A DNA stretch of 64,000 nucleotides from Naumovozyma dairenensis CBS 421 (taxonomy: Eukaryota > Ascomycota > Saccharomycetes > Saccharomycetales > Saccharomycetaceae), in assembly GCF_000227115.2 (NCBI RefSeq), contig NC_016479.1, positions 1,672,686-1,736,685 on the forward strand, written 5' to 3'. Within the stretch, counting starts at the first letter, position 1; each line of letters opens with the position of its first letter. Under the pieces are notes generated by a model that ran no database searches, had not been told where the DNA came from, and saw only the letters and a list, made by a program, of their open reading frames with translations. Shown piece by piece: positions 5,635 through 12,920 of this stretch. Position numbers and translations under genes: made by a program.

Positions 5635-8303
5635 ATATTGTTACTTTAGGGCTCTTTAGCTTTAGTATATGTGCTGTATGGTGGCAAAAGAAACGATCTT
5701 TTCTTCAGTAATCTTCAAACGTTTTGGCAGATAAGTAATGTATATGTCGAGAATTAATCTCAGGGATAGTAACCTAGACTATAGTTCTTGCAATGTAAAG
5801 GTTAAGTGCCTAGGTCGGATACCTTTCTTACCCTTCTTATTCTTCTTATTAAGTTTTGCCCATTTTCCATCTCTTTCTCCGTTGATATCATTTTTAAGAT
5901 ATGACTTTACCTCGAGAAAGGGAGCAATCTGCATTAGGTCTTCGCGAGACACCCGGACTTCTCTTTTCTTTTGTCAAGGGCTGAAGCCACATCTCTTTAC
6001 CTATTACCCTACTTAATTTTACAAAGCCCTATAAGCCACAGTTATCACTTCGATAACTGAACTTCCACCAAGTCATATCAAAACATCCTACGTATTACAT
6101 GTGAATTACCCATTAGCTCACATCGACTACGTGCGTACAAACATATAAAAAGCTTTCATTTTACTATTCTTTTTAGAAATAACGATGCATGTGCTGTCAC
6201 GTTTTGTTGTACACCTGGGTTTTATCCATGCTCTTATCTGAATTCCATCTAGTATCTCTTTATTGATTTATAGTGTAACCCCGTATAAGTTTAATCAAGT
6301 AGTAGGAATTTTAGAGTATGATACCTACATAGTGTAACCCATACCTCTCAGTTTATGATATCTGAGTTCATAGGCTTTTTTAAGATTTACTGTTTGGAAA
6401 GAATATAGCGTATGTACGTATGTAGTCAAATGTTTTCGAAAAGAATAGGTCTCAAATTAAGGCTGTTTGTAGGAATAACATAATTCAGACCATAACGAAA
6501 CTACTAGTGGACACTGATCAACTTTTCATCTCAAGTGGGGGCTGCAACGATTAAAGTTCAAGTTAAAGAGCTCAACTGATACCCGTTCATGAATATTAGA
6601 CTTTAAGTTTAACACGGCAACATTCTTCCCGAAGGTTCTATAACAAGAGCTAAGCAATCGAGTCCCCTAAAAATCGAATGGCTTTTGGAAAGCCATATAC
6701 TTAAGTACGTAATTGTTAAAAACTGCTGAAGAATAACTTAATCTGGTTTTTGTTTTTTAAATTTAACTGAGTTCAACTCCATTGAATGATCTTACTTTGG
6801 TTCACTGATTTGTTTACTTTTACCTAAAAAAGCTTAAGTAGGGAGGTCTCAGTATAAGCGCCGTTCAATCGCGGCATATTCTGACCCTAACTTTACATAT
6901 TACCTTAATGGAAAATTTTCGAGTGAAAAATTACGATGAGTGTAAAAGATCATTCGTACCTACGGGTAGTTTACTCGACACGGTCTGAAAATCGGAAAAA
7001 AAGGACGCAATTGTTACAGCTTACCGTACGTTACGGACAAGCTTCATGAAATAGAGCAATAACATTTATTATCACACCAATTTGGTCTGATTTTTGATTT
7101 GTACAAAAAAAAAACATCGCTCCGTTTATTCTTGCTTTCTTGAAACTCTTTGCCCGAAGGGCGTCTGTCTGTCTGGCTGGCGTTAACAGCTTGTGCATAC
7201 ACAATTATATAATTGAAGAAAAACTAGCCCTACGTATAAATCGTTAGAAGTAAGATACGACAAGGATGCTTAGTCGTAAGCAGAGAAACTAGTTGAATTG
7301 GTTCGGCACAGTTCTAAAATTGCTGAAAGCTCCCATCTTCTCTATGTACCTATCGTTATAACGTTTTCCTTGGAAGAAAACGTGACTGGAAGTTCTGTCG
7401 ATAAGACGAACGTAGAAAATTTTTTTAACTCGGAGATTAGTAATTTTCTATTTTTTATTCCGAAAATCTTGAGATTTTTCCGAGAATCCAATTTAACTAA
7501 AAAATGCCACGGCATTCTAATGATAAGATAAATGACAAAATGGATGGCATTTATTTTCTGGCTTCCACTCCTTGAAAAGATAAAATTGAACTCGAGTTAA
7601 TTATTCGGAGTATCCTTAGTCCTTACTAAGGTAACTAAAGACTCCTTAGTTAGGCACTTCCCAATGATTTTTTTGAGGATCGGTAGAGTATGAATAGAAT
7701 TTGTACGCACGTTCGTTAGTAACTTATACTCCCTGTAAAAAAATACCAACAAGTTTGTTGCCTCATCCTTAATCTATTTGAGGGAAATAATAAACACCAA
7801 ATACCCTTCTAGGATAATTATAAATAAACAGTAACCGATGAGTTCAATTGGCTCCCTTGAGGGAAACCTTTCTCTCAGAACGTTACGTAATTGGAATTGC
7901 TAACTCCGTCCAACCTCTACTCTGCTAATATTTGGACGCACTTACGTTTATTAGGGACACCTTTATGCCTGTAAGAAACCTGAAGAAAAAAGAAGGTATC
8001 GCCATTTCCTCGTAGGCTCTAATACCAATTCCAATTCCAATCCCAATTTACGTAATTATATGCCTCAAAAGGGTAACTAGGATATCCTTTCAATGAAATA
8101 ACGCTCACGATTGAAACACTTGAGGAATTTGGTCTTGATATATAAAAATGTTTCTTCGTTCGAGGAAATATGGGCTTGCTATTTTCTGTCTGTCTGTCAA
8201 ACTTTGTCTTTTGTCATCTTGTTCCTTTTTATAATCAAAAATAATTAAGAATATTTAATAAAGAAATCATCTAAACTTAATATTTAAAAACTAATAAAAA
8301 GTA
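5635..8303. other. 2.7-kb gene-free stretch upstream of the rhodopsin-like gene
   Basis: No convincing coding region. Small frames at 5738-6016 and 7298-7531 resemble nothing known. Visible structure: CTGT repeats near 7166-7180 and 8190-8202, a CCAATT-type tandem at about 8027-8047, and a dyad of CCTTAGT units around 7613-7655. The last few hundred bases are the promoter of the downstream gene. Confidence 0.4.
8139..8147 (+). promoter_or_regulatory. TATA box of the YRO2-type gene
   Basis: TATATAAAA lies about 157 bp before the ATG at 8304, a usual distance for a yeast TATA element. TATA-containing promoters fit the stress-regulated behaviour of the YRO2/MRH1/HSP30 family. Confidence 0.6.
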
Positions 8304-10571: not shown

Positions 10572-10576
10572 ATATC

Positions 10577-10827
10577 TGTCGGAATTATAATGTATCTGGC
10601 ACATAGTGTACAGACACGTGGTTTCGTACAACACGATATATGTTTTCTATATAAGAAAATTTTTATTCCATATGTAAAGTGTATAATATATATTACTCTC
10701 CTGTCCTAGGACGGGGAGGAGCAATTCTGCAACGAATCTACCTATAAGGTCAGGTCCTGCAGTCTAATCTGCATCCAATATATGGTTTAATATGTTATAT
10801 TCCCTAAAAAGCAATATGCTTCGAATA
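10577..10827 (+). repeat. Left (5') LTR of the non-autonomous element
   Basis: 251 bp beginning TGTCGGAATT and ending CGAATA, bounded by the target duplication on the left and the primer site on the right. It carries TATATAAG at 10648-10655, a likely promoter. The 3' end is TA rather than the usual CA, but both the primer site and the target duplication fix this boundary. Confidence 0.92.
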
Positions 10828-10835
10828 TGGTAGCG
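10828..10835 (+). other. Primer binding site for initiator tRNA-Met
   Basis: TGGTAGCG immediately follows the left LTR. The same start is found in Ty1, where it pairs with the 3' end of initiator tRNA-Met. Complementarity beyond 8 nt is not evident. Confidence 0.8.
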
Positions 10836-11194
10836 TTTAAAGTTGCACCCTGACCGCAAGGGTTGTTAAGATTTGAGGATCAATAGATGGTGCGTAGTAA
10901 CTGATTGCTGCTACGGAATTACATATACCCTTTGGATGCTACTGGAAATATCCAACCTTCTGTGACCTATTAAGTTAGAGATCACAACTATTTGTGTCCA
11001 GCCCTCTATTTTTGGACAATCCATAGATAGGCATGAATAGGCCTAGATTATGTCTTTGAAACAATCACATACACATTCAGATCAGAACGGTTACAAGTCA
11101 CATATTAGTATAAGTGCTACAACGAACCTAACATAAGTCACTATCAGACAATAAGGAGTTCATTGAATAACGTATTCTATTGCACAGGACCATT

Positions 11195-11540
11195 AGAGTC
11201 AGTGTCCGAAGGCTGACGAGCCAATAGAGCCAGCGTTCACAGGCTGCCGAGCCAATATAGCCATTGTTCAAAAGCTGCCGAGCCATTATAGCCAAGAGTC
11301 ATAGAGCCATGCACCAATATTGCCAGAGTCACAGAGCATATTGAGTTTCCCAGAGCCCGAGAGCCGGAACCATATCGCCAAGCACTAGATGCACACATGA
11401 GTGCCACCGCCAAGTACTAGATGCTCATATGAGCCAACAAGCTGCGAACCAGATGCACAAGCGCCAACAAGCTGAGAACCAGACGCCTACATGCGCCAAA
11501 TAGCCAAGGACCAGAATACCTACATGAGTAAGATTGCCAA
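11195..11540 (+). repeat. GCCAA-rich tandem repeat field inside the LTR element
   Basis: Three clear 31-bp units lie at 11195-11225, 11226-11256 and 11257-11287, each ending close to GAGCCAAT. They are followed by looser units of about 24-34 bp starting with GCCAA (about 11380-11540). The 31-bp period is not a multiple of three, so the repeats do not encode repeated peptides. An RNA role, such as packaging or structure, or neutral expansion is possible. Confidence 0.75.
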
Positions 11541-12130
11541 GAAACCAATTATCAATATCTGCCAAATTGCTCACATACACGTTACTAGTGGTACCAGCGA
11601 GCCCATCCATTAAGTTATCTAAACTATGGTATACGATGGGGGACACGAGTCGTCAACTATACGAATCCCTCTCACCGTATTTACCTTAAGATATCGAAAG
11701 ACTATCAAGACCACTGACCCGAATCCGAAAACCCATTTTTCACTTGCGGGTGATTGAAACATTCAACTCATAACTAGTTTTTAACATCTTTTGCAATGAA
11801 AACTAAAAAAATTACGACATTGCAAACGCATCATCTACGGACGCTAACTATAAAAAAAAAAACCCAATAGTTCCGTTGACAAGTATCCACTATTTGTTAC
11901 CTCTGCCATGATAAATTTATGACCGTCTAAGTCTAATTTTTTTTGAGTGGGGTGGTATATGTCATTACCCATACTTCGTAACGTTTATTTCAATCTTCTA
12001 ACTCAACTACAAGCTTCGAACAGGCGCTGCCCAGCTTCTAATTCGGGTGGTAGAGTTGGAATATATGGAATTAAAAGTGGAATCGCTAAAGGTATAATAA
12101 TACCGAACGATTTCGCCAATATCGATTGTA

Positions 12131-12138
12131 GGGTGGTA
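12131..12138 (+). other. Polypurine tract of the LTR element
   Basis: GGGTGGTA abuts the right LTR, where plus-strand DNA synthesis starts in Ty1. Further copies of the same octamer lie at 11950-11957 and 12045-12052. Confidence 0.8.
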
Positions 12139-12388
12139 TGTCGGAATTATAATGTATCTGGCACATAGTGTACAGACACGTGGTTTCGTACAACACGATA
12201 TATGTTTTCTATATAAGAAAATTTTTATTCCATATGTAAAGTGTATAATATATATTACTCTCCTGTCCTAGACGGGGAGGAGCAATTCTGCAACGAATCT
12301 ACCTATAAGGTCAGGTCCTGCAGTCTAATCTGCATCCAATATATGGTTTAATATGTTATATTCCCTAAAAAGCAATATGCTTCGAATA
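12139..12388 (+). repeat. Right (3') LTR of the non-autonomous element
   Basis: 250 bp, identical to the left LTR except for a single-base deletion (CCTAGACG versus CCTAGGACG). Followed by the ATATC target duplication at 12389-12393. Confidence 0.92.
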
Positions 12389-12538
12389 ATATCGTGTATA
12401 GAATACAACCAAGCAATAAGATTATCAAAAGTAGACGTCAGCTATAGAAGTATTAGAACCGTATATTATAGTTAGAAGAACCAGATTTAGAACAATCATA
12501 CTACCAGTTACAATTACAACTGAAAAACAACAACATTT

Positions 12539-12622
12539 GGAGGGTTGGCCGAGTGGTCTAAGGCGGCAGACTTAAGATCTGTTGGACGGTTGTCCGCGCG
12601 AGTTCGAACCTCGCATCCTTCA
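12539..12622 (+). tRNA. tRNA-Leu, anticodon TAA
   Basis: This 84-nt class II tRNA begins GGAGGGTTGGCCGAGTGG, with a matching 3' acceptor strand ATCCTTC plus discriminator A. The anticodon loop is CTTAAGA with anticodon TAA, the variable arm is long (TGGACGGTTGTCCGCGC) and the T arm carries GTTCGAACC. No intron. As I recall it, S. cerevisiae also has tRNA-Leu(UAA) just upstream of YBR056W, so the gene appears syntenic. The non-autonomous LTR element ends 150 bp upstream. Confidence 0.97.
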
Positions 12623-12920
12623 TTATTTTTTTACATTATTTTATCATGCCATTCTAACCTGTAAGGTTCTTGAATGATCCCCTATTTTCCCTTCTCGTTG
12701 TTTAATGGCAAAATGTAATATCATAGGCTGTATGACGCCATACAAAACTGTAGAAACTTTATACTAGAAAGTAAAGTAAAGAATTCCTTATTTGCATTTG
12801 AGAATCACTAGTTACATTTCTTTTAAGAAGATGAACTAAGTGCTGTTTAGGTTTCCTTATTTTCGAAAACAAAATTATTGCAAATCAAAAAGCAAAAAAC
12901 AAACAAGCAAACAAGCCATA

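What the first reader, a model, noticed from the sequence alone, without database searches (positions are those of the whole stretch)
10572..12393. A coding-free but structurally complete LTR retroelement in a yeast
Seen in sequence: near-identical LTRs (one indel in about 250 bp), an exact ATATC target duplication, a TGGTAGCG primer site directly after the left LTR, a GGGTGGTA tract directly before the right LTR, and no gag or pol in 1.3 kb. Established: these cis parts are the minimum a Ty1-type element needs when its proteins come from elsewhere; plants have such elements (TRIM/LARD), and I know of few in yeasts. Inference: it was mobilised recently, in trans, by an autonomous Ty1/copia relative with the same LTR and primer use, and targeted upstream of tRNA-Leu. 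This is the strongest candidate for an undescribed system here.
Basis: partly seen in the sequence, partly recalled or inferred. Interest (0 to 1): 0.92.

Follow-up and report, generated by a model that had tools for sequence, protein, structure and literature searches.

The report
Coding-free tRNA-seeking yeast LTR retroelement family
This yeast stretch is one copy of a small jumping element that carries no genes of its own, is present in several near-identical copies, lands in front of tRNA genes, and must borrow the copying machinery of larger elements.

Summary
In detail: 10572-12393 has LTRs of 251 and 250 bp differing by one indel, an ATATC duplication, TGGTAGCG after the left LTR, GGGTGGTA before the right LTR, and no coding frame beyond chance in the 1.3-kb interior. 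It is a family. The same genome (13.5 Mb, 11 contigs) shows the interior in seven places (three gap-free copies with their own 5-bp duplications; four nested, cut or gapped) and the LTR at 30 loci. Twelve insertions have LTRs at least 99% like the window's; five of these are solo LTRs. At 23 of 30 loci a tRNA gene lies within 1.5 kb, at 22 of them with the LTR on its 5' side. Ty1-type priming signals are kept: 8 nt of initiator-tRNA primer site, and an 11-nt stretch that can pair with the same tRNA segment as a stretch of a complete copia element. The best-fitting helper is the L049 type (same PPT octamer, tRNA targeting, non-CA LTR end), not proven. The kind is known (TRIM-like elements, coding-free Tca1 of Candida albicans, laboratory mini-Ty1); my searches found no report from this yeast.

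The parts
10572..10576 (+). target-site duplication ATATC, left copy
10577..10827 (+). 5' LTR, 251 bp, TGTCGGAA...TTCGAATA (non-canonical TG..TA ends)
   Evidence: same ends at 5-bp duplications of other copies
10828..10835 (+). primer-binding site TGGTAGCG, 8 nt complementary to the 3' end of the tRNA-Met (initiator type, recalled) gene in L047
10870..10880 (+). Box 1-like stretch GATTTGAGGAT that can pair (with G-U) with tRNA-Met positions 45-55, the segment that GATCCGAGGAC of the complete copia element L050 pairs with
   Evidence: Ty1 Box 1 spacing from passages of PMC5454406
10917..10929 (+). weak candidate cyclisation arm, 13 nt with one mismatch to 11955-11967
   Evidence: 8 of 200 shuffles reach it; no such pairing in L049 or L050
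11190..11520 (+). degenerate 30-31-nt tandem repeats of the interior
11950..11957 (+). first GGGTGGTA, internal
12045..12052 (+). second GGGTGGTA, internal; altered in the copy at C2:1371412
12053..12130 (+). stretch resembling the start of the LTR of copia element L047
   Evidence: score 50.5, reached by 4 of 1000 shuffles; other three LTRs 182, 616 and 701 of 1000
12131..12138 (+). polypurine tract GGGTGGTA directly before the right LTR
12139..12388 (+). 3' LTR, 250 bp
12389..12393 (+). target-site duplication ATATC, right copy
12538..12623 (+). tRNA-Leu(TAA) gene next to which the element sits

Best explanation
The window holds one copy of a multi-copy, non-autonomous, non-coding LTR retrotransposon family of the Ty1/copia type in a Saccharomycetaceae yeast (probably Naumovozyma dairenensis; name recalled, not tested). 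Shown: LTR pair, target duplication, primer site, polypurine tract, several near-identical copies of the interior, placement on the 5' side of tRNA genes. Inferred: RNA polymerase II copies it from the LTR; its RNA is packaged by particles of an autonomous copia element; initiator tRNA-Met primes on the 8-nt site with help from the Box 1-like stretch; plus-strand synthesis starts at GGGTGGTA; a tRNA-gene-seeking integrase inserts it; LTR-LTR recombination leaves solo LTRs. The helper is most likely the L049-type element, which shares no LTR sequence with it.
For: Interior in 7 places, LTR at 30 loci. Exact 5-bp duplications at 20 of 30 loci. tRNA gene within 1.5 kb at 23 of 30 loci, LTR on the 5' side at 22. 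Against a list of 63 scored tRNAs: this family 10 of 30 loci, L049 type 8 of 26 (7 on the 5' side), L050 type 0 of 18, random places 344 of 20000. PPT-LTR pattern: 9 exact + strand hits, 4 of this family, 2 L049 type with the same octamer, 3 L050 type with GGGCGGTA, control pattern 0. L049-type LTRs also end without CA (TG..CG) at intact duplications. Box 1-like match to the exact tRNA segment used by L050: 5 of 5000 shuffles, and once in both strands of the window. In Ty1, 380 nt from the 5' end and 357 nt from the 3' end suffice with proteins in trans (PMC4974528, passages).
Against: No helper is shown. No element with the same LTR was found. The features that point to a helper are split: the primer site and Box 1-like stretch resemble L050, targeting and PPT fit L049, a subterminal stretch resembles L047. 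L049's own primer region pairs with tRNA-Met only from its fourth base after the LTR. The general test for long pairing with the tRNA is weak (71 of 1000 shuffles reach 11 nt), and the copy at C1:1360175 has a substitution in that stretch. No excess RNA structure in two interior pieces (z 0.53 and 1.74). The window copy has 14-17 indel events against the other copies although its LTRs differ by one, so LTR identity may misjudge age, or the assembly is noisy there.
Confidence: 0.88

Rival explanations
1. A relic family: derivative of an autonomous element with this LTR that is now extinct in this genome; the interior is decayed or replaced sequence and the last burst used the now lost parent.
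For: 19 older LTR loci (about 84-98% like the young LTR) exist without any interior, so the LTR family predates the copies that carry the interior; nothing ties the interior to the older insertions.
Against: Neither a young nor an old LTR query brings up a bracketed gag-pol; interior frames do not resemble gag-pol. Does not exclude a parent in other strains or in assembly gaps.
Confidence: 0.35
2. The helper is the L050-type element (iMet primer site and Box 1 alike) and not the L049 type.
For: TGGTAGCG plus a stretch at +50 to +60 pairing with the same tRNA segment as this element's +43 to +53; L050 LTRs of its complete copy are 100% identical, so recently active.
Against: L050-type LTRs are not found next to the 63 scored tRNAs (0 of 18); of 8 of the 18 loci fetched with about 0.8-kb flanks, 2 have a tRNA and both are on its 3' side; PPT differs by one base; canonical TG..CA ends.
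Confidence: 0.15
3. Segmental duplication or assembly artefact rather than retrotransposition.
For: Gaps of N lie inside two copies and beside a third; the window copy has many private single-base indels.
Against: Different flanks and different 5-bp duplications at each copy, and solo LTRs with duplications.
Confidence: 0.02

Closest known systems
TRIM (terminal-repeat retrotransposons in miniature), plants and some animals
   Same: two LTRs of 100-350 bp, PBS and PPT, non-coding interior, 5-bp duplications and Met-tRNA primer in plants, partner often not found (passages of PMC3532108, and PMC6934838)
   Different: 1.8 kb in all against under 1 kb; tRNA-gene targeting; no sequence relation tested
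Helenus (fungal TRIMs with tRNA-derived LTRs, Pucciniales)
   Same: non-autonomous fungal LTR element, 5-bp duplications, copia-type mobilisation proposed (passages of PMC10886601)
   Different: no tRNA-like sequence in the LTR: Rfam scan of the element gives nothing better than E 9.6, not tRNA
Tca1 of Candida albicans
   Same: yeast LTR retrotransposon without coding frames (one passage of PMC7175516)
   Different: 5.6 kb; not compared by sequence here
Laboratory mini-Ty1 with helper Ty1
   Same: coding region removed, 5' and 3' cis regions kept, moved by proteins in trans (passages of PMC5454406, and PMC4974528)
   Different: natural, with an interior unrelated to gag-pol and an LTR unrelated to the presumed helper

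Membership tests
Non-autonomous LTR retrotransposon | LTR pair, target duplication, PBS, PPT | tested here: met
Non-autonomous LTR retrotransposon | no gag-pol | tested here: met
Non-autonomous LTR retrotransposon | several copies sharing the interior | tested here: met
Non-autonomous LTR retrotransposon | mobilised in trans | not testable with these tools
   needs a bench test; only inferred
TRIM | LTR 100-350 bp, non-coding interior | tested here: met
TRIM | total length under 1 kb | tested here: not met
   1812 bp in the window, 1797 and 1798 bp in the two other gap-free copies; hence TRIM-like, not filed as TRIM
Helenus | tRNA-derived sequence in the LTR | tested here: not met
Ty1/copia-type cis signals | initiator tRNA-Met primer site and further pairing with the tRNA | tested here: met
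   8-nt site; Box 1-like stretch is suggestive
Ty1/copia-type cis signals | CYC5-CYC3 complementarity | tested here: inconclusive
   8 of 200 shuffles
Ty1-type targeting | insertion upstream of tRNA genes | tested here: met

The most novel reading that the evidence does not exclude
A chimeric retro-satellite: an element whose cis signals were assembled from several copia families (primer region like L050, PPT and LTR-end type like L049, a subterminal LTR scrap like L047) and which is moved across family lines by a helper sharing no LTR with it. Helper choice would then rest on a few short signals and not on LTR kinship.
Probability: 0.3. Interest if true: 0.65.

Novelty: new member of a known kind. 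Interest (0 to 1): 0.45.

Why it matters
Partners of TRIM-like elements are often not found. Here the whole genome is 13.5 Mb, with few complete copia elements and a natural counterpart of the mini-Ty1 constructs, so the question which signals a helper reads can be narrowed by comparison, strain surveys and helper-gene removal in a yeast. It also adds a tRNA-gene-seeking non-coding element to a family of yeasts in which Ty biology is best known.

Tried and rejected
Internal deletion of one autonomous copy: rejected, interior multi-copy and without gag-pol likeness. Same-LTR autonomous partner: searched with a young (38 matches) and an old LTR (36 matches), not found; flanks of fetched LTR loci searched with copia frames gave only one relic into which a copy of this family had inserted. 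Not followed up: Ty3-type integrase or RT hits lie 2-5 kb from three LTR loci (C7:975303, C8:649626, C7:865832), each with a single LTR of this family. The four partial copia RT places (C11:254881, C1:61159, C4:291770, C2:169337) were not checked for their LTRs; the C2 one is L050-like. LTR homology with L047-L050: local scores 69-77.5 for all four, so no signal. Ty1-like pairing of the R start with the leader: nothing beyond 9 nt with two G-C pairs. RNA structure: none beyond shuffles. Papers: searches; only open-licence PMC texts, so subscription papers are not covered. Species name is recalled; a window protein matches PDB entry 6jp6 (Trm7, yeast, recalled) at E 3.2e-172.

Full report
What is there. 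The element spans 10577-12388 between ATATC duplications, with LTRs of 251 and 250 bp, TGGTAGCG at 10828 and GGGTGGTA at 12131. GGGTGGTA is present two more times inside (11950, 12045). The interior shows no frame beyond chance and no likeness to the gag-pol frames of four copia elements of the genome.

It is a family. The window lies at G000:C1:1672686-1736685 of a 13,527,580-base genome in 11 contigs. The LTR has 38 matches there, which I merged to 30 loci; an old LTR as query gives 36 matches at the same loci. The interior matches in seven places: the window; C2:1371663 and C2:1442498, both gap-free with duplications GAACT and AATAG; C1:1360427, inserted in the LTR of a minus-strand copy at C1:1362067 which itself sits in a copia relic with TATGT on both sides, the two separated by a run of N; C7:974016, gapped, with TGTAG on both sides; and C3:495796, cut by a gap. 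Twelve insertions have LTRs at least 99% like the window's; seven carry interior and five are solo LTRs with exact duplications. At the other 19 loci the LTR is 84-98% alike and no interior is found. Exact duplications are seen at 20 of 30 loci. Search counts are lower bounds by the tool's own note.

Age and quality. Among the four long copies, pairs differ by 12-15 substitutions over about 1,530-1,800 sites; indel events are 3-5 among the other three but 14-17 with the window copy. As its LTRs differ by one indel only, the window's extra indels may be sequencing or assembly noise; I do not give an age.

Targeting. ARAGORN in two settings and Rfam's tRNA model put a tRNA gene within 1.5 kb at 23 of 30 loci; at 22 the LTR is on the 5' side, at C1:207047 on the 3' side; seven loci have none. 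With a partial list of 63 scored tRNAs (of 963 first-look candidates) the family has 10 of 30 loci within 1.5 kb, all on the 5' side, the L049 type 8 of 26 (7 on the 5' side), the L050 type 0 of 18, and random places 344 of 20000. Distances are mostly 120-650 bp, as far as 1,267 bp.

Priming and polypurine signals. The tRNA-Met gene in L047 predicts the primer site TGGTAGCGCCGC; the element has the first eight bases. At +43 to +53 it has GATTTGAGGAT, which can pair with tRNA positions 45-55; L050 has GATCCGAGGAC at +50 to +60 for the same segment, and the three differences keep pairing through G-U. The chance of matching that exact segment is 5 of 5000 shuffles, and the match occurs once in both strands of the window; but 11-nt runs with any part of the tRNA occur in 71 of 1000 shuffles, and one copy has a substitution there. 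In Ty1 Box 1 lies at nucleotides 144-149 with the primer site at 95-104 (PMC5454406, passages), so the spacing is alike. PPT octamer: shared with L049 type, one base off L050 type.

Helper. Copia RT has nine matches in the genome, of which four belong to complete elements that I fetched (L047-L050) with RVT_2 and integrase domains. Their LTRs differ from this family's and from each other. L049: same PPT octamer, pairing with tRNA-Met but offset by three bases from its LTR, upstream-of-tRNA placement, LTR ends TG..CG at intact duplications, 12 LTRs at 99-100%. L050: primer and Box 1-like region alike, but not tRNA-targeted. L047: tRNA-adjacent, other primer site, LTR start resembling 12053-12130. 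The L049 type fits most points; this is inference.

Known kinds. TRIM-like elements lack coding regions and often have no known partner (passages of PMC3532108 and PMC6934838). Fungal Helenus has tRNA-derived LTRs (passages of PMC10886601); not met here. C. albicans Tca1 is a coding-free yeast LTR element (passage of PMC7175516). Searches for Naumovozyma with retrotransposon or TE terms and for non-autonomous yeast elements listed no report of this family. The species name is recalled.

Noticed in passing
L049:1578-2140 and 7170-7731 (C2:1493077-1499230): Copia element with LTR ends TG..CG and a tRNA-Met-complementary stretch that starts three bases after the LTR, not directly at it.
   Followed up: partly
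L047 (C7:78104-84449): A complete copia element sits inside an LTR of this family, with 33 bp of that LTR missing and no clean duplication seen.
   Followed up: partly
C7:239771-240589: An L049-type solo LTR is inserted in an LTR of this family with GGTTT duplicated.
   Followed up: yes
L050-type LTRs, e.g. C6:1700, C10:2359, C11:695925, C9:784679: Several L050-type LTR pieces lie close to contig ends, perhaps subtelomeric.
   Followed up: no
window 12053-12130: Piece after the second GGGTGGTA resembles the start of the L047 LTR, as if an older PPT-LTR junction were fossilised inside the element.
   Followed up: partly
C3:66949-66964 (-): One-mismatch PPT-LTR-start motif near a solo LTR, without a longer LTR match.
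   Followed up: partly
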